Assembly (NCBI RefSeq): GCF_037126465.1
Contig: NC_088201.1
Span: 224,570,016-224,634,015 of the forward strand
Reading direction: 5' to 3'
DNA: 64,000 nucleotides
Source: Ornithodoros turicata
Lineage: Eukaryota > Arthropoda > Arachnida > Ixodida > Argasidae
The number at the start of each line of letters is the position of its first letter. The first letter of the stretch is position 1. This document shows, in pieces, positions 3,850 to 62,822 of the stretch. The notes beneath the pieces are model-generated. The model saw nothing but the letters and a program-made list of their open reading frames with translations. It ran no database searches and was not told where the DNA came from. Position numbers and translations under genes: made by a program.

Positions 3850-4724
3850 CAGGGTGTCTCAGAAAGCGTGTCATTGAATTGTAATAAAATAACTACACCA
3901 CCTAGAATAATGCGCGCGGTTAACGGCGTTTGTTCTTACTAGGTTTTTGCCACCTACTGATGTTAATGTCTTGTAATGTAAGTGTAATTATGTAAATTTT
4001 TGCGAACTGAACTCGGGAATTTGCCAAGTTAATGTCACTTTTTCACCCCACCAATGTGAAGAGCGTGCCGAATTTACTCAAATTAATGGTAATTGACAGG
4101 GATATTGAGGGGTTACCCCACTGGAAAAAACAGCCGAACATCACGCTCTACGGAGCTCCCACAGGGTAGCTGGTGACAAATTTTCAGCGCAGTCGTTGTC
4201 AGTCCGACGAAAGGAGGTCGTAAACCCAGCACACACCGGCATCGTAGAAAGAGATAACACAGGCGTAGCCTATCACATCCGGCTTCCGCTGGGATCATGC
4301 CCTCCCACTCCCAATTTGAGGAACTGTCACTTTTTCTACTATCACGTTGTGGGCTGGGTTTGCGACCTCCTTTCGTCGGACTGGCGGCGTTTGTGCACAA
4401 AAAGTCTTCGCTCGTTAGGCTTGGGTGCTCCGTAGAACATGATTTTCGACTGTTTTTTCGATGGGATAGCTCCTGAATATGACTGTCTATTATCATGAAT
4501 TTGAGTAAATTCGGCACCTTCTTCGTATTGGTGTGCTGAAAAAGTGACCTTTACATGGCAAATTTCCGAGTTGAGCTCGCAAATGTTTACGCATTTTAAC
4601 TTAAGTTACATGACATTCCATCAGCAGGTGACAAACACCTAGTAAGAATAAATGGGGTTGACCGCATGGTCCTACGTGGCGTAGTCTGTTTTATTATAAT
4701 TCAATGACACTTTTTCTGAAATAC
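3850..4724. mobile_element. Long palindromic (foldback) MITE
   Basis: The whole stretch folds back on itself. The left end (CAGGGTGTCTCAGAAAGCG, then GTGTCATTGAATTGTAATAAAAT) matches the reverse complement of the right end. The inner arms also pair: a block around 4198-4230 containing GACGAAAGGAGGTCG matches 4349-4382 inverted. No open frame is recognisable. The right tip has drifted from the left tip, so the target-site duplication cannot be read with confidence. Confidence 0.7.
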
Positions 4725-6653: not shown

Positions 6654-6971
6654 TAGCCCATACCAGTGTGTTCCTTCCTCTGGATGGCGCCACAATCGGA
6701 AACAGCATTGCGGACGGCATTGAAAACAACGAAGTGCATCGAACTTGATGCACAGAACTGTTGTATAAAGCGATTTTCTATACAGACAAAAAATTATGAT
6801 TGCAATACGCAGTGTAAAACGGCGAAGGCGAAATATGAGAATGAAGGCAACCAAGTAGCACTCAAGCAGACGATTCTGATTTCCTAGGTATCGTCGGCAA
6901 ATGTCTTCAAGTTATTCGACATAATTAGTAATTGACAGAATGGTGTAAATGCAGGCTAGCTGGTGGATAAA

Positions 6972-7118
6972 TTCCGTGGTAGGCAAGCCTGAGCGATGGG
7001 CACGACACGTAAACAAACACAAACACGAAGGCTCAAGCCTAGAAGCCGAAGGCTAGAGCCTTCGTGTTTGTGTTTGTTTACGTGTCTTGCCCATCGCTCA
7101 GGCTTGCCTATCATGGAA
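6972..7118. repeat. Near-perfect 147-bp hairpin at the left edge of the Polinton
   Basis: The left arm begins TTCCGTGGTAGGCAAGCCTG and the right arm is its inverted copy ending GGCTTGCCTATCATGGAA. Each arm is about 65 bp around a ~15-bp loop near 7045. The right arm ends inside the presumed Polinton target site. It resembles in design the hairpin at 19895-20005. Confidence 0.85.
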
Positions 7119-7120
7119 TA

Positions 7121-19634: not shown

Positions 19635-19894
19635 GTACGTTTAAATCTCTGAACTCCTGTATAGAGCATAGTGTATGCATGCATGGGTCATCAATTAGTG
19701 CAAAGAGCTTTCTCAAGTCAGTTTATGGTGTAGTTTTATTCTAGGCCAGCCCATACTTATACTAGCCTATGTGCTTTAGGACTGGTTGCAACAAGGCCAG
19801 TTAACTTTTCACAGACATCAGTCACCCCTTAGTCACTATACGTATCTCTTAAGTAAAGTAACAATCACATAATTTTTGGAAACATCAGTGCTTT

Positions 19895-20005
19895 CCATAA
19901 CTTAAAAACCCCGAGACTAGGGGACAAAAAACGACAAACACAGACAAGGTCTTGTCTGTGTTTGTCTTTTTTTTGTCCCGTAGTCTCGGGGTTTTTAAGT
20001 TATGG
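19895..20005. repeat. 111-bp near-perfect hairpin
   Basis: Left arm CCATAACTTAAAAACCCCG and right arm CGGGGTTTTTAAGTTATGG, pairing across almost the whole length with a tiny loop at GACAAGGTCTTGTC near 19945. It is located in the 3' part of the CACTA-like element, after the last recognised exon of the companion gene. Confidence 0.85.
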
Positions 20006-20782
20006 ATCTATACCACCAGCTCGCTTGCTACCTCTCTATCCTCTCGTTATCAGTGCTTTATTGTGAGCACTAGTAATTAACATTAACAAGAACTATAGAG
20101 TTAAATTCAAATTTCAATTTGAGGATCTGCCATTGATTTCTGCTGAAATGTTAAATGACATTCAGGTAGGTCCTTAGTGTACAGGAGTTGTGCAACAGAA
20201 ACTAAGGCATAGTGACTAGGCTTATAATGGATGGCACATGCCTAGAAAGTGAGAGGCTCTCAGCTAATTGGGATTATTATGATATTGCGAGTAATGTAGT
20301 CGAGAGTTAAAGGTCACACTATACATTTCCATCTTGCAGGCAACTTGACGCAAACTATGCTGCATAAGTCCAGACTGCCAGGGTACCACAACTACCAGAA
20401 ACGATAATTTCGTGGCAAGTGTACACGTTGATACCTGAATAATAATAATATAACATCCGTCATTAATACACTGTGTGAAATAAAAATGACAAGACTGCAT
20501 TTTTTCTCTGTGTTTGATACTGTTGCTCAGACAAACTGTTTGTTTCCTGCTGTGTCTAAAACAAGACTAAAAAGGAGAACAGAGTACATGTTCACTTGTG
20601 TGCCAAGTACCTTCGACGTTGAAAGCTGCCGACTGATGTTGTCTGTCTGATGACATGATGCTTCACGAGACAGGCGCTCAGTGCATTCCTTTCAGAATAT
20701 AATCAGGGCCCTTAAAGGGTGCATTCACTACACGCCTAAATTGGTGTCATGACGTCCCATTTTGCTTGCAAGGTACTCTGTA

Positions 20783-28327: not shown

Positions 28328-28823
28328 CTGGTGTGATGCCTTGCAACTACTTGGCCACCTGTCGTCGATCTCTGCAACTGCGGGTGCCTACTACCAACAT
28401 GGCGGGCGCTGGTCACTCGGGTCTTCCGGAGCGGTTTCTTCGGGACGGCAACATTGATTTTCGAATAAATTGTTTCTCTCCACTCTATTTCTATCTATTT
28501 ATTTTATTTTCTACCTATTTTTTTATTTTTACTGACTCTCGTAGTGCACAACGCTCAGCTGGTCTGGACACGAGATAGACGCTCCCCAATTAGTGTGATG
28601 GCTCCCTGGAGGGTGATGATTAATGTGGGGGCCCAATTAGCTCTAATTGCTAATTAAATCGTGTTCAGGACAGTTGAGCGTTGTGAACTATGAGAGTCCA
28701 GTGCTTACTAGTGACATACACCTTTTCCTCTTATCGTTCACTCTTTTCTGATTGTTTACTGCGTATTCACCTGCTGTCCTAACATGTATATACCGCGTTC
28801 CAACTTTATTCACATTGCGCACA

Positions 28824-33000: not shown

Positions 33001-33530
33001 GAAGGAATGTGAACTGAAAGTGTGTGAGTCGCAGCAAGGCGCTGCATCAATGTTCGCGGGGCCTATGTTGATGCATAACGACCTTCGCAAACGGCTACAA
33101 GAGGTTTGCATTTCGAAAAGGCCCTCTTCTTGGCCAATCATTTGCTGTCATGAAGCCAGGCGGTCCTGTCGCCAAAGACCCTTCGGTCGCTCCTTTATGT
33201 GGCGTGCTAGTGGTCAAGGGCGCTGACTGGTTGGACTTGCCCCTAGTGTCGCTTTCTTGAATTTGCAGGGAGTGAATTCCGGCATCGTCGACATCCGTCT
33301 TCTGCTCTTGTCATGTATCGCAGCAAACTGCACAGAAACTACTTCCCTAATTGGTGTCGCACATTCGGCATTCTTGTCGAACGGGTAAAACGAGTAAAAC
33401 GTTACCATACTTTTTGAATCGACAGGGTCGGATGCGGTCGTGCCTGCAAGCATTTGCATCGGGAGTAAATCCTATGATGCAAAAATATTCCAAAAGCCGG
33501 GAGATGACATAACTAGACAAAAAAGAAGAG
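33001..33530. other. No gene recognised
   Basis: Intron DNA of the GH18 gene; no family, element ends or repeats seen beyond the flanking features. Confidence 0.4.
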
Positions 33531-33794
33531 AACTCCGACTTAACATAACATAGTAACAAGGTTTACTCAGATGTTTCGTCCGTCAGGCGACGGAGATCAT
33601 TAGTGCCAAACTGAATGAGAGATTACACACCCGGTCGCTATTTAAATTTGCGCCAATTAAATAGCGACCGGTTGTGTAATCTCTCAATAAATAGCGACCG
33701 GTTGGTGTAACCGCTCATTCAGTTTGGCATTGATGATGTCCGCATGACGGACGAAACGTCTGAGTAAACCTTGTTATTTTGTTAAGTCGGAGTT
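33531..33794. mobile_element. 264-bp palindromic MITE
   Basis: AACTCCGACTTAACA at the left matches TGTTAAGTCGGAGTT at the right; the pairing continues through TTTACTCAGATGTTTCGTCC and CCAAACTGAATGAG. The centre holds a partial tandem copy of AATAGCGACCGGTTG (about 33659 and 33690). Confidence 0.75.
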
Positions 33795-33955
33795 ATCTAC
33801 TTTTTTTTGTATAAATCCTTGAGTTGAGGGAGTCAGCAGTCGTTCTGTTTGCTGCTTCTTCTTCATTGTGCGTGCCATTGCTGCTACTTATATCCCAGCA
33901 TGTGGAAATCCCAACTGACACAGGTTACCACATGAGTACAAAATAAAAGGCTTAC

Positions 33956-43861: not shown

Positions 43862-43863
43862 TA

Positions 43864-44556
43864 CAGGGTTCGCCAAGATAAACTTCGGGGTTTGTAACGA
43901 AGATAAAACAAATAAGAACAGTGTCGGAAAGCTAAAGTAGAAGTTAGAGGACGTATTATGCCCCAAAATATTTTATGTTCATAATGCCGCCTAGTCTGTT
44001 ACTCTGCGGATAAGTCGTGAAGATTAAAAAACCGCCGCTGCCTAATCGGCTATACTTGTGTTCCAGCTACATTCCTATGATGGCGACACGAGCGAATGCG
44101 GCGTCGCAGAGAACTAATATGCATTCAGTTCCACATGTTCGATGTTGTCTGCAACGCCCGCGCTCGACCGCTTCGCCATCTGACGGAAAGGAGCTGAAAT
44201 ACAAACTGTGGTTCAGCTCCTTTCCGTCAGATGGCAAAGCGGTCGAGCGCGGCGTTGCAGACGACATCGAACATGTGGAACTGAATGCAGACTACATGGC
44301 AGACTAGTTCTCTGCGACGCCGCATTCGACCGTGTCGCTATCTGAGGAAAGTAGCTGGAACACAGGTATAGCCGATTTTGCAGCGGCGTTTTTTTTTATT
44401 TTCACGACTTACACGCAGAGTAACAGACTAGGCGGCATTATGGACAGAAAATTTGGCGACATAATACGTCGTCTAACTTCTACTTTAGCTTTCCGACACT
44501 GTTCTTATTTGTTTTATCTTCGTTACAAACCCCGAAGTTTATCTTGGCGAACCCTG
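43864..44556. mobile_element. 693-bp palindromic MITE flanked by TA
   Basis: CAGGGTTCGCCAAGATAAAC at the left pairs with GTTTATCTTGGCGAACCCTG at the right, and the arms continue to a centre near 44205. TA dinucleotides lie on both sides (43862-43863, 44557-44558), fitting a Tc1/mariner-mobilised foldback. The inner arms contain the block CCATCTGACGGAAAGGAGCT and its inverse. Confidence 0.85.
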
Positions 44557-44558
44557 TA

Positions 44559-48603: not shown

Positions 48604-48605
48604 TA

Positions 48606-49005
48606 GAGTCGCTAAATAAGCTACGCTTCAGAGTAGCGACACTGAGTTCCAAGAACGAGCATGCGCCATCTTGTTTCCGCGCTACGCTACACACGCGCAG
48701 GTGCAATGCGGACTTTAGCGCACGATGCCATCCACCGTGCGCGGGTGAAATGTTCCTTTCGTTTGCAAACAGCAGTTGACGGCCTTGAGCTCACGTTGAC
48801 ATCAACGGGACGCTCTGGTTGACAATACATGGGTTATCGCCCAAAAATCATACACGTTTCTCTATATCCCACAGGGAGCATTATGTTAGCCATCTTTGAT
48901 CCTCAACTGGGGATAATACCGGTGTGGTGCGGAAACAAGATGGCGCTCCTACTCTCCCTTGGACCTCAGTGTCGATACTCTGAAGCGGAGCTTATTTAGT
49001 GACTC
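48606..49005. mobile_element. 400-bp inverted-repeat MITE flanked by TA
   Basis: GAGTCGCTAAATAAGCTACG pairs with CGGAGCTTATTTAGTGACTC; the arms continue through a GATGGCGC / GCGCCATC block. TA stands on each side (48604-48605, 49006-49007). Confidence 0.75.
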
Positions 49006-49229
49006 TACCTGGTGCACCTTACATGTACATCTCCTCCAACTGCTTTTTATTTTATTTGTACGTGTGTGTGCGTGTGACACTTTTGTACCAGATCATTTAG
49101 GTAAATATAATCATCTGTCACGCTTTTCCGCTGCCAGAGGTGTGGCCGTGTGTATACAAGGTCCGCTAATTTGCGGTGACCGCGTGGTCACTCTGTTCGG
49201 TCAGAGTCAGTCGCAGTGAGTACGAAGTA

Positions 49230-51149: not shown

Positions 51150-51155
51150 CTTCAA
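51150..51155. repeat. Target-site duplication, left (CTTCAA)
   Basis: CTTCAA immediately before AGTAGTATATG; the identical hexamer follows the right end at 62817-62822. Six bases is the Polinton duplication length. Confidence 0.9.
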
Positions 51156-54100
51156 AGTAGTATATGATCAGCTCAACTTGCCCACAACTCACACAGTGGC
51201 CTGGACGCCATTAATGAGCAATTAAAGCAATTTGGGACCCCCCCCACCAGCTCCGGTGGCGCAGCGGTAACGCGTGCGCTTGGAGACTGGGAGGTCCGCG
51301 GTTCGAATCCGCGGGCCGGCTGTGCTGTCTGGGGTTTTTCCTGGGTTTCCCTCAGATGTGTAATAGGCGTATCCCGGCACAGTTCCCCTGAAGTCGGCCC
51401 ATGGACGCGGCTATCCTCCCCCCGAGCGGATTCCGCTCGGTCTTCCACTTCACCCTTTCCTCTCCTCCTCTCCACCACCTTTCCCTTCCCGAGAAACATG
51501 CCGCCTAATCAGGAAGGCAGACCTCTCGGGTTCCTCCCAATGACACTCCTCCTCGGGACCCCCCACACTAATTAGGATCATTCAGGGAGTCATTACACTA
51601 ATTGGGGAGCATCTAAGACGTGACCAGACCACTGTGTGAGTTGTGGGCTAGTTGAGCTAATAAAAAAAAATAGGTAGAAAATAAAATAAAAAGTGGAAGA
51701 CAGATGTCGCCATCTTGAAGAAAGCGGTCCCGAACGGCCACTGACCATCGCTGGGCAACGGAGCACATTGCATCGCAGCTATGACCACAAGTTCCGGACA
51801 TCCTGTGACGTCATCATGACGTGTCTGGGCAGCTTAGGACAGCTCTGGGCATGCGAGGAGAAAAACACTCGTAATACAGAGGCTGGGAAAGCAACAGTAA
51901 ATATGCAAACCTTCAATAGCTAACAAGAAAAAGAATTAGTTACACAACAAATGATCCCACCACAACAGCAGTCTAGGGGAGCGCAGAACGATGCGACTGC
52001 TCTATCCGACAGCCAGGCAGAGAACTGACTCGTAATGGTTTTTTTCTCCTGTATAAAGCCCCGTAGTTGCACACCCTAGCGGTTACTTTCTCAACTAATC
52101 TAACGACAAAATTATTAAGAATCATGCCAGCACTACTACCGTTCCCAAGGCAGAAGAAGACAGAAAATGGCGAGGATGCCCGGACAACAGGAACCAGCAC
52201 CCGACGTGCACAGGCATGAAAATCGCAAACAAAGCGGGGACAAAGTTGGCGAATGAATTAGTTACACAACCAATCAACCCACCACAACAGGAGCGCAGAC
52301 TGATGCGACTGCTCCCTCCGAGAGGCAGCGCTGAGTGAGCGCGGGGACTGCGGAACAACCGAGGACACGCCTGCTCTCCGCGACAGCCAGCGAGAAACTG
52401 GCTGAGGCGCCGCGCCGCGGCAGCTACGCATACGCGCGCTCCTAGCGCCCTCTGCTCCACCCGTCCGCGCATGCGCGCGCGCTCCTACCGCCACCTGCGA
52501 GAGGCTAAGAGAGAAGAGCATTCCTGCGCCCTCTTCTTGCGTTACTCATTGGTCGTGACGTCATCCGATTGTCTCAGGGCTACCCTGCTTTTTTTTTCAC
52601 ACAGTCGACACGACTGGACAAGGTCAATCTGCAATGAAGCTATGGCATAATGTCATCATGCACCTGCGTGGCTCAAGGACGCGTACGCTCTAGACAGGGG
52701 ACCTATTATTTATTGAATCACTATCCCAAGATTATTTCCTTTATTCTTCTATAACGTTTGCATAGGAAACTATTGCAGATGAGCACCATGCATGAAAGCT
52801 GATCGTAGGAATTCCAAAGTCTTACTAAATGAGACTTGCAAAAGAACAAAATATCCTAACACGTAACTCCATCAACGGCTAATAAGAGGACTAGGCACTC
52901 AACAAAACAACACCGAGTACAGGTAACAAGGAGCGCAGAACGATGCGTCTACTCCATCCGACAGCCAGGCACGGAACTAAGTCGTAATGCTTTTTCTCCT
53001 CTATAAAGTCCTGCATCTGTCCCTCTTGCGGTTGATTTCTGAACTAATTTAATCGCGAAATTATTAAGAATAGCACTATTCCCATTTAGGGCAGCACTAT
53101 CGTCAAGACAACAATGTTCCTTGTCAAAAAAGAAAAAAATACTAAGCTTCAACAAAGGAAAGCATGCATATTGGGGCATGTCAGAACATGTCAGGACAAA
53201 TTGCACGACTGCTGGGCAACAGAGGAAAACAAACACTTGAACAGAGTGAAAAGACACTCACTATCATCGGACACGTACACTTTCCCTCATTGTAAATCCG
53301 CTCGTCACAAAATCCACCTGCATCGTCGAATACCATTCACCAGTGACGAACCACACATCCGCACCCTATCAGAGGCAGACAGAACCCCAGCGAAACTAAG
53401 CTCTTCCACTGACGGCCAACGCAATTGCTAGGAGCAGAATTAACGTGTCCAGACCCGCCAATGTTCAAGAAAGAAGTGAATCCTTGCGCCCCCTGCAGGC
53501 CGTTCTCATTGGTCGTGACGTCACCCTATTATCTTACGGCTACACTGTTTTTTTCCACTAATGCTCCTCTAGACAAGGTCAACCTGAAACAATAGTGTTG
53601 CAGTAGGACGTCATCATGCAGGTGCGTGGCTCAAGGACGCTTACGCTCTAGACAGGGGACCTGTTATTTATTGAATCACTACCTCTAGATTATTTTCTTT
53701 ATTCTACTATAATGATTGCATAGGGAACTATTGCACAAAAACACCATAGATAACAGGAGATTGTAGCCTTTCATAAGTCCAAAGTCTTACTGTACAGGAA
53801 AAAACAAAATAATGGTTCAGCAAGACATGTCCATCACAGCCGAGAGCCATGCAGCTAACTCAATAATGACGCTTTGTTCCTCCTGAATAAAGTCACACAC
53901 CTGTCCCCCTCGCGGTTACTCTCTGAACTAAATGAATCGCAAAATTATTAAGAATAGCTCTACTTCTATTCAAGGCAGCACTATCGTCAGCATCAAGAAT
54001 ATTCCTTGTACAAAAAGAAAAAAACTACATGTAGAAGGAAAGCATGTCAGGACAGGTCAGAGAATGTCAGCGCATGCTTGGCAGACAACAAGGGGGAAAA

Positions 54101-57043
54101 AAGCGAAAAGAAACAAAGAAGAAAACCAGCATCAAACTATTGCTAAGCACACACACTCCTCTTATTCAAAAACAGTGCTCATCATAAAGCCGTCCAGGGC
54201 AATACACACCATTTTTCAATTGCTACACTTTTTTCCAGTAACGGTCAATGCATTGCTACAGACTGCGTGACGTCATCACATCCTGTCTGAAGAAGACAGC
54301 GGCAAAGACAAAGACTCTTATTATTTATTGAATCGCAAGATTATTTCGTTTGTCCTACTCTTAATGACATTCATTCTCTGATTAAAATTCAACAGAAAAG
54401 CAGCGTGCATACTAACGATTTTCACGCCAAAGGCTAATCATGGTCATTAGAATTACAGTAAACTACCACTTCTCTTTAAAATAATAAGTGAGTCCACTCA
54501 ACATCTCCTCCAGGCTTATGTAATACATGACTCTTTCTATGCTCATACATTCGTTGTCTGAGGCTACACCTCCGAGCAAAAAGGCGCGAAAGCCGGGGAG
54601 CAAAGTTCCATTCGCGCACGCCAAAGCACAAGACAGAACGCCTTTACGGGAACATGATGACATTCCCACCATATTAATGACCTTGCATTGCAGTTTAGAA
54701 AAACTACTAGAAAACTATAATTTTAGGAGCCCATTAAAATTCTACTTTCTATGGAAACCATAATTGCCCTATTACTCGGATCGCTATAAATGAAGAACTC
54801 CAATTTCTTCTCTCTTCCTATGTCAGCCTTGTCATGCAGTGAAGCAGACTCACATCCAAAATAATTAATTTACACTGAGGGTGCCATGCTTCAGGAATTC
54901 CTATCCTGCGCTCAGATGCAAGCATTTCTTCACGGATACCTTTAACAGCTGACTTCCTCAACATACCGTGCTCCTAACAACATGTAACAAACAATCAGAG
55001 GAACCCTCTTCTCAGCCGTACCATGCGACTTTCTTCTGCGTAAAATCGGTGATTTGAGGAAGAGAGCAGCGAAAAATTGCGCGCACTTGTGCTTGACTTA
55101 AAAACCTGAAGCATATGATAATAAACTAAGAAAAAGACACTCATGTCTGGTATCTGATAGTGCCACATACACAGACGCATTGCCCTCGCGTAAAGAAAGC
55201 ACAGGACAGGGATACACAATTTTCCTTAGGTGAGCAGGGAAAAGGCTTAAGACCTCAGGTTACCACACATCGCCACGCGGCTAGCACAACATGACACCAA
55301 CAAGATACTAGCAGCGGGAAGAACTGCAACACTGCTAAACAAGTCCAGACATGCCATGATGACGTCACAAATCAGGAAAAAAGCACACGCATGCACGCAC
55401 ACAGGACAACGCATTAAACACACGGAGCGCTGAGGAATAATCGTAATGTTACCGCACATCGCTACGAAGCTCAACGCCTAACACAAGACGACAGCAACAA
55501 TATATTAGCGAAGGGTAAAAATTGCAACACTACTGAACAAGTCCAGACATGCGACATCGCATACAAAACACTGTTCATCGGGGAAAAGGCCTAAGCCTGC
55601 GGCCGCTCATCATAGAGTATACACAACTTCATTTTTCTATTTCGCGTAAACTAAACGCGGTCTGCTTGGAAAACGACGTACAAATTTTCTTAGAGAACAG
55701 ATAAATATAGAAATTTCTACTCTGGTGCTCAGATACCAGCATTTCTGCTCAAAAACCTGCAAAATTAAGCACTGCTTACTTCGTCAAGATATTGAACACC
55801 CATCAAAATCAAACAAACAACCCCACTTCCACTGATAGAACTCTATTCAGCTTTTACGCAGGAGGCTTTCTTCTGCATAAAAATAGAGAAAATAAGAAAA
55901 GAGCAGCGAAAAATTACACACACTTTTGCTCGCATAGCTATAAGAGAAAAAATAAAAATAACGACGCACACGCTAATAAACAGTGACAAAGACACCCATT
56001 TCTGCTATCAGATAATTATTGCATAATGCTAAATACTCATTTGCATTGTCTCCGGTGCGTGAAGAAAGCACAGGACAGGGATACACAGTTTATCTTAAGC
56101 GAGCACGGAAAGTCACTTCTACTCGAACAGCTTAATACCATAAAGTCTGAATTTTGGCAAATAAAATAAAGCTTGAACAGGGCTACAAAGGTGACAGACA
56201 CATGCTAACAAACAAACAAACAAACACTTCTATTCATTTCTATTGATAAAGGCGTAAACCACACTACCAGAACAAAGCACACTGCTTCAGGAAAGCGTAT
56301 CAAATGCAACGCAACAGGACCGGCTCTCATAAAATAGTCTGCCCAAAACAAAGACTTCACCAGGTTCGCGAGGCAATTCTATTAAAAACGCTCTCGGTCT
56401 ATCCAACAGATACCAATGCAAATGCGACTACCCTTATTTTTTTAACCACTATTTCATGCAATAGTACATAAATGTATCACTCGTGTCACACGAAAAGGCA
56501 AACACTTGTCAAGTGGGGTCCCAGCGCACGCGCACGCACACACACACACACACACACACACATTTTCACACTCACAAACACTATTCTCACAACCACATAA
56601 ATCCATATTATTCCTCAGGTCAATAATTATCCTACCATGGTCAAAAGATGGCTCGCTCTTGTATGCGATCGCAAAGCGATAGGTCCTTGTTCCGGATGTA
56701 ATAGGATATCGCCACTCGACCGACGCGAACCAAAAAAGAAAGAAACGAATGCACGTTCGCAATACCTCCACGAAGAAAACGGTGCCGTGCTTCTACGCAG
56801 CGATCATCATACAGGAGTGAATTGCCTTCTTCGTTTTCCTTTTATTTTCTTGCACCCATATATTTTGCAAGAATACTATAGAGGCCCAACAGAGCAGTGC
56901 GCTCCCATCAACACAACTTGGGCTGACCTTACACACCCAAAGCCTTTTCTGAATACATTCTGCTGGCGCTGGAATAAAAAGATTTATCGCCAGGGTACAA
57001 CAATGTCAGCTCTGCTTCCGTTTAAGTGATAAAACAGTGCGCC
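51156..57043. repeat. Foldback left arm, made of tandem modules
   Basis: At least three modules of roughly 0.6-1 kb recur. Each contains TATAAAG/AATAAAG followed by a CGGTTACT/GGTTGATTT word, then AAATTATTAAGAAT (about 52040-52120, 52990-53070, 53885-53955), and a TTATTTATTGAATC word with ATTATTT (about 52710, 53665, 54320). A TGACGTCA palindrome falls in each: 51806, 52556, 53516, 54268, 55360. A further pair of related segments covers about 55020-55300 and 55860-56120 (CAGCGAAAAATT ... AGCACAGGACAGGGATACAC). A (CA)n tract is at about 56533-56562. Confidence 0.75.
51245..51554 (+). mobile_element. tRNA-derived SINE (Ruka-like)
   Basis: Starts with a tRNA-like head: A box GGTGGCGCAGCGGTAACGCG and B box GGTTCGAATCC. 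A C/T-rich body with CCCGAGCGGATTCCGCTCGG follows. The word GGGACCCCCC lies on both sides (51234-51243 and 51555-51564) as a target-site duplication. The corresponding place in the right arm (62733-62742, inverse) has a single GGACCCCCC and no insert. tRNA-derived SINEs of this build (Ruka) are known from ticks; naming is by recollection of the tRNA-like head. Confidence 0.85.
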
Positions 57044-57170
57044 CGAACCGCGCCCCATGCGAACCGCACGCGGGCCCGTTCTCGCGACGCGACGCGCGCG
57101 ATTCCCCGTGCGAGCGCAACGCGGGCCCCGCGGTTTGGACGCGCGCGATGTGTTACCGTTTCCCCGAGCA
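57044..57170. other. GC-rich loop of the foldback
   Basis: 127 bp between the arms, very rich in CpG, with repeated CGCGCGAT, GCGAACCGC/GCGGTT and CGGGCCC words that allow further pairing. Single-copy in the window. Confidence 0.75.
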
Positions 57171-60100
57171 GGCGCACTGTTTTATCACTTAAGCAGTGAT
57201 ATCACGGAAGCAGAGCTGACATTGTTGTACCCTGGCGATAAATCTTTTTATTCCAGCGCCAGCAGAATGTATTCAGAAAAGGCTTTGGGTGTGTAAGGTC
57301 AGCCCAAGGTGTGTTGATGGGAGCGCACTGCTCTGTTGGGCCTCTATAGTATTCTTGCAAAATATATGGGTGCAAGAAAATAAAAGGAAAACGAAGAAGA
57401 CAATTCACTCCTGTATGAATCGCTGCGTAGAAGCACGGCACCGTTTTCATCGTGGAGGTATAGCGAACGTGCATTCCTTTCTTTCTTTTTTGGTTCGCGT
57501 CGGTCGAGTGGCGATATCCTATTACATCCGGAACGAGGACCTATCGCTTTGCGATCGCATACAAGAGTGAGCCATCTTTTGACGATGGTAGGATAATTAT
57601 TGACCTGAGGAATAATATGGATTTATGTGGTTGTGAGAATAGACTTTGTGTTTGTGAGTGTGAAAATGTGAGTGTGTGTGTGTGCGTGCGTGCGCGCTGG
57701 GACCCCACTTGACAAGTAAGTGTTTGCCTTTTCGTGTGACACGAGTTATACATTTATGTACTATTGCGTGAAATAGTGGTTTTAAAAAAATAAGGGTAGT
57801 CGCATTTGCATTGCTATCTGTAGGATAGACCGAGAGCGTTTTTAATGGAATTGCCTCGCGAACCTGGTGAAGTATTTGTTTTGGGGAGACTATTTTATGA
57901 GAGCTGGTCCTGTTGCGTTGCATTTGATATGCTTTCCTGAAGCAGTGTGCTTTGTTCTTGTAGTGTGGTTTACGCCTTTATCAATAGAAATCAATAGAAG
58001 TGTTTGGTTGTTTGTTAGTATGTGTCTGTCACCTTCGTAGCGCTGTTCAAGCTTTATTTTATTTGCAAAAATTCAGACTTTACGGGATTAAGCTGTTCGA
58101 GTAGAAGTGACTTTCCCTGCTCGCTTAAGATAAATTGTGTATCCCTGTACTGTGGTTTCTTCACGCACCGGGGACAATGCAAATCAGTATTTAGCATTAT
58201 GCAATAATTATCTGATAGCGGAAATGGGTGTCTTTGTCACAGTTTATTAGCGTGTGCGTCGTTATTGTTATTTTATTTTTTCTCTTATAGCTATGCGAGC
58301 AAAAGTGTGTGTAATTTTTCGCTGCTCTTTTCTTATTTTCTCTATTTTTATGTAGAAGAAAGCCTCCTGCGTGACAGCTGAATAGTGTTCTATCAGTGGA
58401 AGTAGGGTTGTTTGTTTGATTTTGATGGGTGTTCAATATCTTGACGAAGTAAGCAGTGCTTAATTTTGCAGGTTTTTGAGCAGAAATGCTGGTATCTGAG
58501 CACGGAGTAGAAATTTCTATATTTTTCTGCTCTCTAAGAAAATTTGTACGTCGTTTTCCAAGCAGACCGCGTTTAGTTTACGCGAAATAGAAAAATGAAG
58601 TTGTGTATGCTCTATCATGATCGGCCGCAGGCTTAGGCCTTTTCCCCGATGAGCAGTGTTTTGTATGCGATGTCGCATGTCTGGACTTGTTCAGTAGTGT
58701 TGCAATTTTTACCCTTCGCTAATATCTTGTTGCTGTCGTCTTGTGTTAGACGTTGAGCTTCGTAGCGATGTGCGGTAACATTACGATTATTTCTGAGCGC
58801 TCCGTGTGTTTAATGCATTGTCCTCTGTGCGTGCATGCGTGTGCTTTTTTCCTGATTTGTGACTACATCATGGCATGTCTGGACTTGTTTAGCAGTGTTG
58901 CACTTCTTCCCGCTGCTAGTATCTTGTTGGTGTCACGTTGTGCTAGCCGCGTGGCGATGGGTGGTGACCTGAGGTCTTAAGCCTTTTCCCTGCTCACCTA
59001 AGGAAAATTGTGTATCCCTGTCCTGTGCTTTCTTTACGCGAGGGCAATGCTTCTGTGTATGTGGCACTATCAGATACCAGACATGAGTGTCTTTCCTTAG
59101 TTTATTAGCATATGCTTCAGGTTTTTTAAGTCAAGCACAAGTGCGCGCAATTTTTCGCTGCTGTCTTCCTCAAATCACCGATTTTACGCAGAAGAAAGTC
59201 GCATGGTACAGCTGAGAAGAGGGTTTCTCTGATTGTTTGTTAGATGTTGTTAGGAGCTCGGTATGTTGAGGAAGTCAGCTGTTAAAGTTATCCGTGAAGA
59301 AATGCTTGCATCTGAGCGCAGGATAGGAATTCCTGAAGCATGGCACCCTCAGTGTAAATTAATTATTTTGGATGTGAGTCTGCTTCACTGCATGAACAGG
59401 CTGAAATGGGAAGAGAGAAAAAATTGGAGTGCTTCATTAATAGCGATCCAAGTAATAGGACAATTATAGTTTCCATAGAAAGTAGAATTTTAATGGGCTC
59501 CTAAAATTATAGTTTTATAGTAGTTTTTCTAAACTGCAATGCAAGGTCATTAATATGGTGGGAGTGTCATCATGTTCCCGTAAAGGCGTTCTGTCTTGTG
59601 CTTTGGCGTGCGCGAATGGAACTTTGCTCCCCGGCTTTCGCGCCTTTTTGCTCGCAATGCGCGAATGGAACTTTGCCCCCCCCCCCGGCTTTCGCGCCTT
59701 TTGCTCGCAGGTGTAGCCTCAGACAACGAATGTATGAGCATAGAAAGGGTCATGTATTACATAAGCCTGGACGCCATGTTGAGTGGACTCACTTATTATT
59801 TTAAAGAGAAGTGGTAGTTTACTATAATTCTAATGACCATGATGAGCCTTTGGGGTGAAAATCGTTAATATGCACGGTGCTTTTTTGTTGAATTTTAATG
59901 AGAGAATGAATGTCATTAAGAGTAGGACAAAGGAAATAATCTTGCGATTCAATAAATAATAGGAGTCTTTGTCTTTGCTGCTGTCTTCTTCAGACAGGAT
60001 GTGATGACGCCACGCAGTCTGTAGCAATGCAATGACCGTTACTGGAAAAAAGTGTAGCAATTGAAAAATGGTGTGTATTGTCCTGGACGGATTTATGATG

Positions 60101-62816
60101 AGCACTGTTTTTGAGTAAGAGGAGTGTGTGTGCTTAGAAATAGTTTGATGCTGGTTTTCTGCTTTGTTTCTTTTCGCTTTTTCCCCCCTTGTTGTCTGCC
60201 AAACATGCGCTGACATGCTCTGACCTGTTCTGACATGCTTTCCTTCTACATGTAGTTTTTTTTTTTTGTACAAGGAATATTCTTGACGCTGACGATAGTG
60301 CTGCCTTGAATGGGAGTAGAGCTATTCTTAATAATTTTGCGATTCATTTAGTTCAGAGAGTAACCGCGAGGGGGACAGGTGTGTGACTTTATTCAGTAGG
60401 AACAAAGCGTCATTATTGAGTGAGCTGCATGGCTCCCGGCTGGGATGGACATCCATTATTTTGTTTTTTCCTGTACAGTAAGACTTTGGGAATGAAAGGC
60501 TACAATCTCCTGTTATCTATGGTGTTTTTGTGCAATAGTTCCCTATGCAATCATTATAGTAGAATAAAGAAAATAATCTAGAGATAGTGATTCAATAAAT
60601 AACAGGTCCCCTGTCTAGAGCGTAAGCGTCCTTGAGCCACGCACCTGCACGATGACGTCCTACCGCAACACTATTGTTTCAGGTTGACCTTGTCTAGAGT
60701 ATCATTAGTGGATAAAAACAGTGTAACCGTGAGACAATAGGGTGACGTCACGACCAATGAGAACGGCCTGCAGGGGGCGCAAGGATTCACTTCTCTCTTG
60801 GACACTGGCGGGTCTGGATACGTTAATTCTGCTCCTAGCAATTGCGTTGGCCGTCAGTGGAAGACCTTAATTTCGCTGGGGTTCTGTCTGCCTCTGATAG
60901 GGTGCGGATGTGTGGTTCGTCACTGGTGAATGGTGTTCGACGATGCAGGTGGATTTTGTGAAGAGTGGATTTACAATGAGGGAATGTAGTGTACGTGTCC
61001 GGTGATCGTGAGTGTCTTTTCACTCTGTTCAAGTGTTTGTTTTCCTCTGTTGCCCAGCAGTCCTGCAATTTGTCCTGACGTGTTTTGACACGCCCCGATA
61101 TGCATGGTTTCCTTTGTTGACGCTTTGTATTTTTTCTTTTTTGACAAGGAACATTGTTGTCTTGACGATAGTGCTGCCCTGAATGGGAATAGTGCTATTC
61201 TTAATAATTTCGCGATTAAATTAGTTCAGAAATCAACCGCAAGAGGGACAGATGCATGAGTTTATAGAGGAGAAAAAGCATTACGACTCAGTTCCGTGCC
61301 TGGCTGTCGGATGGAGTAGACGCATCGTTCTGCGCTCCTTGTTACCCGTACTCTGTGTTGTTTTGTTGAGTGCCTAGTCCTCTTATAAGTTGTTGATGGA
61401 GTTACGTGTTAGGATATTTTGTTCTTTTGCAAGTCTCATTTAGTAAGACTTTGGAATTCCTACGATCAGCTTTCATGCATGGTGCTCTTCTGCAATAGTT
61501 TCCTATGCAAACGTTATAGAAGAATAAAGGAAATAATCTTGGGATAGTGATTCAATAAATAATAGGTCCCCTGTCTAGAGCGTACGCGTCCTTGAGCCAC
61601 GCATGTGCATGATGACGTCATGCCATGGCTTCATTGCAGATTGACCTTGTCCAGTTGTGTCGACTGTGTGCAAAAAAAAAGGCAGGGTAGCCCTGAGACA
61701 ATGGGATGACGTCACGACCAATGAGTAACGCAAGAAGAGGGCGCAGGAATGCTCTTCTCTCTTAGCCTCTCGCAGGTGGCGGTAGGAGCGCGCGCGCATG
61801 CGCGGACGGGTGGAGCAGAGGGCGCTAGGAGCGCGCGTATGCGTAGCTGCCGCGGCGCGTCACCTCAGTCAGTTTCTCGCTGGCTGTCACGGAGAGCAGG
61901 CGTGTGCTCGGTTGTTCCGCAGTCCCTCCGCTCGCTCAGTTTCTGGCTGCCTCTCGGATGGAGCAGTCGCATCAGTCTGCACTCCTGTTGTGGTGGGTTG
62001 ATTTGTTGTGTAACTAATTCATTCGCCAACTTTGTCCCTGCTTTGTCTGCGATTTTCATGCCCGTGCACGTCGGGTGCTGGTTGCTGTTGTCCGGGCATC
62101 CTCGCCATTTTCTGTCTTCTTCTGCCTTGGGAACGGTAGTAGCGCTGGCGTGATTCTTAATAATTTTGTCGTGAGATTAGTTGAGAAAGTAACTGCCAGG
62201 GGGTGCAGCTGCTGGGCTTTATACAGAAGAAAAAAACCATTACGAGTCAGTTCTCTGCCTGGCTGTCAGATAGACCAGTGGCATCGTTCTGCACTCCCCG
62301 TGACTGCTGTTGTGGTGGGATCATTTGTTGTGTAACTAATTCTTTTTCTTGTTAGCTATTGATGGTTTTCACATTTACTCTTGCTTTCCCAGCCTCTGTA
62401 TTACGAGTGTTTTTCTGCTCGCATGTCCAGAGCTGTCCTAACCTGCCCAGACATGTCATGATGACGTCACAGGATGTCCGGAACTTGTGGTCATAGCTGC
62501 GATGCAATGCAGCCTGCCTCTGTGCTCCGTTGCCCAGCGATGGTCAGTGGCCGTTCGGGACCGCTTTTCTTCAAGATGGCGACATCTGTCTTCCACTTTT
62601 TATTTTATTTTCTACCTATTTTTTATTTTTTATTAGCTCAACTAGCCCACAACTCACACAGTGGTCTGGACACGTCTTAGATGCCCCCCAATTAGTGTAA
62701 TGACTCCCTGAATGGTCCTAATAACTGTGGGGGGTCCTAAATTGCTCTAATTGCTCATTAATGGCGTCCAGGCCACTGTGTGAGTTGTGGGCAAGTTGAG
62801 CTGATCATATACTACT
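57171..62816. repeat. Foldback right arm
   Basis: Inverted copy of the left arm. Differences: no SINE (empty site near 62735); a tandem duplication of about 55 bp around a C10 run (59634-59710, units containing CGGCTTTCGCGCCTTTT); and a shorter, mixed (TG)n at about 57668-57692. Inverted TGACGTCA sites are seen at about 62464, 61707, 61614 and 60743. Confidence 0.85.
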
Positions 62817-62822
62817 CTTCAA
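62817..62822. repeat. Target-site duplication, right (CTTCAA)
   Basis: Identical to 51150-51155. Confidence 0.9.

What the first reader, a model, noticed from the sequence alone, without database searches (positions are those of the whole stretch)
51150..62822. 11.7-kb giant palindrome that is a TIR-only, non-autonomous Polinton
Seen: two inverted ~5.6-kb arms, tips AGTAGTA..., and a perfect 6-bp CTTCAA duplication. Ordered landmarks are shared with the TIR of the coding Polinton in the same window, and no coding trace is present. Known: Polintons begin 5'-AG and make 6-bp duplications. Inference: a Polinton lost its whole coding core and kept only expanded TIRs, becoming a 'Polinton MITE' or foldback. 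Such very large TIR-only Polinton derivatives are not a standard described class to my knowledge.
Basis: partly seen in the sequence, partly recalled or inferred. Interest (0 to 1): 0.9.

Follow-up and report, generated by a model that had tools for sequence, protein, structure and literature searches.

The report
Gene-free giant palindromic Polinton family
The tick stretch is a gene-free, almost perfectly mirror-image mobile element related to virus-like Polinton transposons, and the same genome holds further copies at other sites, so it belongs to a family that has spread and is not a one-off wreck.

Summary
51156-62816 is an 11,661-bp palindrome: arms of 5,888 and 5,646 bp (about 96% identical), a 127-bp GC-rich spacer, (AGT)2 tips and an exact CTTCAA duplication. 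The outer ~1 kb of each arm matches the TIRs of the window's coding Polinton (202 bits; best of 300 shuffles 32.8).

Of 18 further elements taken in E-value order, 14 show inverted second-arm sequence, and none matches a Polinton gene piece in the parts fetched. Ten copies have both tips read: nine have exact, distinct 6-bp duplications, one has 5/6. Seven of the 18 share the central spacer, so the family spread as a palindrome.

Two results go further. The arms of a copy are each other's closest relatives in 7 of 7 copies testable on the TIR segment, as if equalised around insertion. All 29 tips examined fold into a ~175-nt hairpin with many compensatory changes.

Best reading: a non-autonomous family moved in trans by Polinton enzymes. 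The replication route is inferred.

The parts
51150..51155 (+). left target-site duplication CTTCAA
51156..57043 (+). left arm, tip AGTAGTA inward, 5,888 bp including the 321-bp insert
51167..51661 (+). left tip hairpin (stem strands about 51167-51210 and 51618-51661), its loop now carrying the insert
   Evidence: stem limits carried over from the right arm
51231..51551 (+). 321-bp insert in the left arm; tRNA-like promoter boxes seen by eye (SINE-like, name recalled); duplication GGGACCCCCC at 51234-51243 and 51555-51564
   Evidence: absent from the 28 other tips aligned; ARAGORN and Rfam gave no hit
51560..51693 (+). block homologous to the coding Polinton TIR (78%)
52294..52469 (+). block homologous to the coding Polinton TIR (82%)
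57044..57170 (.). central spacer, 127 bp, about 74% GC (computed on 57049-57172), homologous in seven of 18 further elements
57171..62816 (-). right arm, 5,646 bp, inverted copy of the left arm
62632..62805 (-). right tip hairpin, about 174 nt; the predicted fold leaves a 14-nt unpaired tail
62817..62822 (+). right target-site duplication CTTCAA
7121..28712 (.). coding Polinton in the same window (yardstick): polymerase B and integrase domains, TIRs of 815 and about 1,122 bp, same type of tip hairpin; its own flanking hexamers agree at only 4 of 6

Best explanation
It is one copy of a multi-copy, gene-free, non-autonomous Polinton family in a soft tick. Shown: Polinton-type tips and 6-bp duplications, TIR homology, insertions at many sites, a shared palindromic centre, arms that are sisters within most copies tested, and a conserved tip hairpin. 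Inferred: the element borrows the protein-primed polymerase and integrase of coding Polintons. Its tip (short (AGT)2 repeat, then hairpin) acts as origin and integrase site. Because the element is self-complementary, a displaced strand can fold back on itself; mismatch repair in that stem, or template switching by the polymerase, equalises the two arms before integration. After integration the arms drift apart as ordinary chromosomal DNA.
For: Ten copies with both tips read: 9 with exact 6-bp duplications, 1 with 5/6, all distinct. TIR homology at 202 and 136 bits against a shuffle maximum of 32.8. Of 18 elements fetched in E-value order, 14 show inverted second-arm sequence (L014 and L030 only by 78 and 124 bp); no stretch matches any of 18 Polinton reading-frame pieces. 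The spacer alone matches in 7 of the 18 (70-125 of its 127 bp, 82-90% identity, E of 3e-19 or lower). Arms are sisters in 7 of 7 copies testable on the TIR segment (bootstraps of 60: W 60, C 60, I 60, J 60, B 56, A 47, G 37), in 4 of 4 on a middle segment and 4 of 5 on an inner one. Arm divergence is even along the arm in 7 of 9 copies tested (W, C, E, H, I, J, K; p 0.52-0.86). The genome has at least 96 polymerase B matches, 87 without an internal stop by my count, so enzymes in trans are plausible. (AGT)2 tips, 6-bp duplications and the jumping-back role of tip repeats are described for vertebrate Mavericks (PMC8097293, passages).
Against: No experiment shows movement, trans-acting proteins or a hairpin intermediate. 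Arm sisterhood is not complete: copy K fails on the inner segment (7 of 40 bootstraps), G is weak (37 of 60), and by raw identity one arm of B and one of C (TIR segment), F (middle) and K (inner) are marginally closer to another copy. D, E, F and H could not be tested on the TIR segment. Arm divergence is uneven in B (p = 0.0001, identical run of 313 where about 122 is expected) and in F (p printed as 0.0), so local conversion or alignment trouble plays a part there. The inner ~3 kb of the arm has no shown Polinton origin. Copies D and F are only 53-54% covered by inverted repeats at 88% identity or more (five copies tested). Several of the 18 elements were fetched only in part, so genes outside the fetched parts are not excluded.
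Confidence: 0.72

Rival explanations
1. In-place loss: a full Polinton with unusually long TIRs inserted here and later lost its coding core by deletion on the chromosome.
For: Would also keep tips and the 6-bp duplication. Most vertebrate Maverick copies are defective (PMC8097293, passages).
Against: Both deletion ends would have to fall within the 127-bp spacer, and a homologous spacer recurs in seven other elements at other sites. The longest TIR given for vertebrate Mavericks is 1,447 bp (PMC8097293, passage) and the window Polinton has 0.8-1.1 kb, against 5.6-5.9 kb here. No gene piece was found in the fetched parts of 18 further elements.
Confidence: 0.06
2. Arms are equalised after insertion by chromosomal gene conversion between the two arms, as in Y-chromosome palindromes (recalled), and not before insertion.
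For: Would also make the arms of a copy sisters. Two of nine copies tested, B and F, have uneven arm divergence, B with an identical run of 313.
Against: Conversion leaves patchy identity, yet 7 of 9 copies have even divergence (W p = 0.61; C, E, H, I, J, K p = 0.52-0.86). In the window copy the longest identical run is 197; the 210 printed as expected is too generous, and the formula used gives about 132, so this run alone is no argument either way. The insert in the left arm was neither copied nor removed.
Confidence: 0.18
3. The tip hairpin is kept without selection, because hairpin-templated repair copies one stem strand onto the other.
For: Blocks of the stem change together on both strands (copy D carries one type outside and another inside, on both strands).
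Against: All 29 tips keep the core of the fold, 28 of 29 with a 10-14-nt unpaired tail; much of the loop sequence is also conserved.
Confidence: 0.3
4. Assembly artefact: a missed sequencing adapter turned one strand into a false palindrome.
For: Such artefacts exist with long reads (recalled).
Against: Arms differ by 4% with a CpG bias, one arm alone has an insert with its own duplication, the two flanks differ beyond the 6-bp duplication, and further copies lie on many contigs.
Confidence: 0.01

Closest known systems
Polinton/Maverick self-synthesising transposons
   Same: (AGT)2 tips, 6-bp duplications, TIR homology to a coding copy in the same window, presence in a genome with many polymerase B genes (PMC8097293 passages)
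   Different: no gene found, arms of over 5 kb that meet at a 127-bp spacer in the window copy, copies of 6.8-14.4 kb; vertebrate Mavericks have TIRs of 46-1,447 bp and sizes of 12.7-24.6 kb (PMC8097293 passage)
Galileo and Foldback-type elements of Drosophila
   Same: non-autonomous copies made of two long TIRs, TIRs grown by internal tandem repeats and by recruiting inner sequence (PMC3573991 passages)
   Different: Galileo TIRs reach about 1.26 kb and its transposase is of the P superfamily (PMC3573991 passages); tips and duplications here are of Polinton type
MITEs
   Same: gene-free, TIR-only, several copies with duplications
   Different: more than ten times longer than the usual limit (limit recalled)
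Self-complementary defective genomes of adenoviruses and panhandle intermediates of linear plasmids
   Same: palindromic DNA with origins at both ends, expected from protein-primed replication; panhandle-shaped replication intermediates of invertron plasmids are proposed in PMC1864894 (passages); the adenovirus case is recalled
   Different: those are transient or episomal; this one is a heritable, dispersed family

Membership tests
Polinton/Maverick | 6-bp target-site duplication | tested here: met
   9 of 10 copies exact, 1 of 10 at 5/6; the coding Polinton of the window itself shows only 4/6
Polinton/Maverick | terminal 5'-(AGT)2 ... (ACT)2-3' motif | tested here: met
   both window tips begin AGTAGT; motif from PMC8097293 (passage). 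Single-base departures in some other tips (for example L024, L018, L030)
Polinton/Maverick | TIR homology to a coding Polinton | tested here: met
   202 and 136 bits against a shuffle maximum of 32.8, over the outer ~1 kb only
Polinton/Maverick | own protein-primed polymerase B and retroviral-type integrase | tested here: not met
   no Pfam family at its cut-off in the 10 arm frames scanned; no match to 18 Polinton frame pieces in the fetched parts of 18 further elements. Filed as a non-autonomous derivative, not as an autonomous Polinton
Polinton/Maverick | capsid, ATPase and protease genes | tested here: inconclusive
   none seen, but capsid and ATPase genes were not identified in the yardstick Polinton either
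Non-autonomous transposon family | several insertions at independent sites with own duplications | tested here: met
Non-autonomous transposon family | proteins of an autonomous relative act on it in trans | not testable with these tools
   only the presence of at least 96 polymerase B matches in the genome is shown
Foldback/Galileo | long TIRs with internal tandem repeats | tested here: met
   tandem duplications in the arm, offsets about 960 and 870 bp, 77-84%
Foldback/Galileo | 7-bp duplications (Galileo) | tested here: not met
   6-bp duplications here; the 7-bp figure from PMC3573991 (passage)
MITE | short length, below about 1 kb (recalled) | tested here: not met
   11,661 bp

The most novel reading that the evidence does not exclude
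A lineage of heritable, gene-free, self-complementary satellite genomes of Polintons: one ancient palindrome with tip hairpins that replicates through a long snap-back stem on a helper's protein-primed polymerase, has its arms reset to identity in each cycle, may ride in the helper's particles, and has spread at the helper's expense as a transposon counterpart of defective interfering genomes.
Probability: 0.35. Interest if true: 0.88.

Novelty: new variant of a known kind. Interest (0 to 1): 0.74.

Why it matters
Polinton biology has been read mainly from genes. A gene-free family shows which DNA parts travel without them: the tip repeat, the tip hairpin and the 6-bp duplication. The sister-arm pattern is a record, written in chromosomal copies, of how the element is copied, and makes fold-back replication of a Polinton relative testable by counting. 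The hairpin, kept with compensatory changes in gene-free and coding elements of this tick, is a concrete candidate for the replication origin or integrase site of this Polinton lineage.

Tried and rejected
Tip 19-mer: 1 hit in IMG/VR and 2 in GTDB genomes. For GTDB (257 billion bases) I reckon about 1.9 by chance; for IMG/VR I did not reckon it. The viral hit shares only 25 bases with the window; the comparison of the two GTDB loci failed for want of a file and was not repeated. A-rich box in IMG/VR: 0 hits. PolB scan of IMG/VR: 2 distant loci; the one held end of L004 folds like its shuffles, that of L005 somewhat better (-26.4 against -19.8, sd 2.3) but as branched short stems; whether those ends are true termini is unknown. 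Rfam and ARAGORN: no hits. Coding traces in arms: no Pfam match at its cut-off, no protein relatives for 2 frames. Of 16 arm frames tested for openness in other copies most were interrupted in many; a few in the GC-rich TIR part stayed open in 12 of 15 and 14 of 24 near-full hits, on both strands, which I read as composition. Strand asymmetry of the arms was left unexplained. Central spacer fold: nothing special (z = 0.64, on 57049-57172).

Literature: all ten searches of the open PMC library were used. Those aimed at non-autonomous, palindromic, foldback or hairpin Polintons listed no paper that, by title and start of abstract, describes gene-free palindromic Polintons, but the lists are capped: 20 of 54, 15 of 20, 15 of 21, 15 of 58, 15 of 149, 11 of 11. 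Exact phrases such as 'non-autonomous Polinton' gave 0 papers. Passages of PMC8504770 and PMC12220804 added nothing; PMC4028283 holds none of the four terms asked. Subscription papers and Repbase were not searchable; two papers were not held.

Limits: W_L was left out of the 29-tip alignment because of its insert; D_R, E_L and F_R (segment too short) and H_R (no hit) dropped out of the TIR tree. The genome DNA searches score only the best 40 of 5,135 and of 4,125 candidates, so copy numbers are lower bounds. By my count 17 of the 38 non-window primary matches were not fetched. One nucleotide match of the Polinton core in L021 (183 bp) falls on the MITE at window 19894-20052, not on a gene. Changed on checking: the gene-conversion rival was raised from 0.15 to 0.18 because one search found B and F uneven.
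Full report
WHAT IS THERE. The window holds an 11,661-bp palindrome at 51156-62816. The left arm is 51156-57043 and the right arm 57171-62816, with a 127-bp GC-rich spacer between them. Both tips begin AGTAGTA and CTTCAA stands on both sides. The arms differ at 223 of 5,547 aligned columns; the differences are evenly spread (p = 0.61) and enriched at CpG (12.1% against 3.2%). One arm carries a 321-bp insert with a 10-bp duplication that is absent from the 28 other tips aligned. Near-equal arms at the start, followed by ordinary chromosomal decay, fit these facts; a sequencing artefact does not.

RELATION TO POLINTONS. The region 7121-28712 is a Polinton: a polymerase B domain (PF03175, E = 2.7e-6) and an integrase core (PF00665, E = 1.3e-8), with a weak, below-cut-off adenovirus-protease match. 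Its TIRs are 815 and about 1,122 bp; its own flanking hexamers agree at only 4 of 6 and its right tip has one changed base. The palindrome's arm matches these TIRs in two collinear blocks (76-77% and 85%, up to 202 bits). In 300 dinucleotide shuffles the best score was 32.8 bits, and five other blocks of the window, both strands, gave at most 29.2. Further in, the arm is built of tandem duplications (offsets about 960 and 870 bp) up to about position 2,566. The innermost ~3 kb has no match to this Polinton beyond short repeats. The (AGT)2 tip and perfect 6-bp duplications are hallmarks of vertebrate Mavericks, whose TIRs measure 46-1,447 bp; the repeated tip is thought to serve the jumping-back step of protein-primed replication (PMC8097293, passages read).

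THE FAMILY. The host is very probably Ornithodoros turicata: the window's contig C1 is 235,596,939 bases long and C2 150,342,175, the lengths given for two O. turicata contigs that carry polymerase relatives. A search of that genome with the outer arm gave 92 matches, only the best 40 of 5,135 candidates being scored. I fetched the first 18 elements in order of E-value (20 stretches) and some continuations. Of the 18, 14 show inverted second-arm sequence in what was fetched: A-K, L017, and, by only 78 and 124 bp at the centre, L014 and L030. Four do not (L021, L023, L026, L032); their stretches stop too early or are broken up. No fetched stretch (L014-L037) matches any of 18 Polinton reading-frame pieces at E of 1e-4 or better; seven of the 18 elements were fetched only in part. 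In ten copies, the window's included, both tips could be read: nine have identical 6-bp flanks and one has 5 of 6; all are different. Those copies measure 6.8 to 14.4 kb. G lacks a recognisable right tip, and no tip was found for the right arm of H. The spacer alone matches in 7 of the 18 (L014, L018, L019, L024, L030, L031, L033; 70-125 of 127 bp, 82-90%, E of 3e-19 or lower). So the palindrome arose before these insertions and spread as such.

ARMS EVOLVE IN STEP. If arms were simply inherited, an arm could be as close to arms of other copies as to its own partner. Over whole arms, identity within a copy is 93.3-98.6% (nine copies); it exceeds the best other copy in seven of nine, B and F being beaten by a short 671-column overlap. 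On a TIR segment the two arms of a copy are sisters in 7 of 7 testable copies, with 37-60 of 60 bootstraps, although by raw identity one arm of B and one of C are marginally closer to another copy. On a middle segment they are sisters in 4 of 4 (F weakly, 26 of 40) and on an inner segment in 4 of 5, copy K failing. Divergence between arms is even along the arm in 7 of 9 copies tested (W; C, E, H, I, J, K) and uneven in B (p = 0.0001, an identical run of 313) and F. The simplest reading is that whole arms are equalised around insertion and drift afterwards, with some later conversion or realignment in B and F.

THE TIP HAIRPIN. The first ~185 nt of the arm fold into one long hairpin that leaves the (AGT)2 tail unpaired (z = -10.2 for the palindrome's right tip, -7.0 and -6.1 for the two Polinton tips). 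In 29 tips from 20 elements (W_L left out), 13 pairs show changes on both sides with pairing kept; 119 cells do so, against 48.7 in shuffles (0 of 500 as high) and 3-17 when the partner is slid. On the same control two weaker measures do not stand out (pairs with a change on both sides, 50 of 500; pair types, 429 of 500), and shuffles do not allow for relatedness. Between the three main tip types the outer stem differs by 7-10 fully compensated pairs against 1-2 broken ones and 0-3 one-sided ones; between closer types (L033 with B, L032 with the Polinton) there are no compensated pairs and 4 broken ones. All 29 tips fold the core of the stem, 27 with all 8 core pairs and 2 with 7; 28 of 29 keep a tail of 10-14 nt and L032 one of 5. 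The hairpin is therefore an old shared part of the coding and gene-free elements seen here. It may be kept by selection or by hairpin-templated repair; my data do not separate the two.

HOW IT MOST LIKELY WORKS. Shown: mobility, in the sense of insertions at many sites with 6-bp duplications; no gene found; a common palindromic ancestor for copies that share the spacer; arm sisterhood in most copies tested; a conserved tip structure. Inferred: Polinton polymerase and integrase act in trans. The genome has at least 96 matches to the window's polymerase fragment, 87 without an internal stop by my count, and TIRs of the window's coding type lie about 11.0 and 11.8 kb from two of them, on C3 and C4 (by eye). 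A displaced strand of a palindrome can fold into a stem of more than 5 kb whose open end looks like a normal terminus, so one end is enough for initiation; mismatch repair in the stem, or template switching, would equalise the arms. Panhandle-shaped intermediates have been proposed for linear invertron plasmids (PMC1864894, passages); palindromic defective adenovirus genomes are recalled, not looked up.

WHAT IS KNOWN. Galileo in Drosophila shows the same trend on a smaller scale: its longest TIRs (about 1.26 kb) sit in non-autonomous copies and grow by tandem repeats and by recruiting inner sequence (PMC3573991, passages). A review of giant transposons describes Polintons as typically 15-25 kb, up to 40 kb, with 5-10 reading frames (PMC6431247, one section and passages); in what I read no gene-free palindromes are mentioned. 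The library searches, with capped lists, named no paper that by title or start of abstract describes them (see Tried and rejected). I rate this a new variant of a known kind. The most surprising parts are the scale, the spread as a ready-made palindrome, the arm-sister signature and the conserved tip hairpin.

Noticed in passing
43862-44558; 3859-4719; 33519-33806; 48604-49007; 19894-20006: Other, much smaller palindromic or inverted-repeat elements with unrelated tips (for example TACAGGG, TCAGAAA), MITE-like repeats; a relative of the one at 19894 lies in L021.
   Followed up: partly
6971-7119 and L029:1609-1628: A 149-bp palindromic MITE abuts the left end of the coding Polinton; palindrome copy E sits in what looks by eye like another copy of the same MITE.
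   Followed up: no
7115-7120 and 28713-28718: The coding Polinton's flanking hexamers GGAATA and GACATA agree at only 4 of 6, and its right tip reads ACTAGTA where the left has AGTAGTA.
   Followed up: no
C1:224714881-224731091 of the window's genome: A second TIR pair, 94% and 93% identical to parts of the window's coding-Polinton TIR, lies about 137 kb away on the same chromosome.
   Followed up: no
51156-62816: The strand running inward from each tip is rich in A and C (A 0.32-0.33, C 0.25-0.26, G 0.19-0.20, T 0.23) in both arms; cause unknown.
   Followed up: no
57044-57170: The central spacer is about 74% GC with CpG observed/expected of about 1.65 (computed on 57049-57172) beside arms of 44-45% GC, and is kept among copies.
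   Followed up: partly
L027:151-380 and 6744-6973: Copy D has a hybrid tip: outer stem of one type, inner stem of another, changed on both strands together, which hints at hairpin-templated exchange.
   Followed up: partly
L024:151-10000: Copy B has a stretch where the arms are almost identical (run of 313) between more diverged parts, a possible conversion tract.
   Followed up: no
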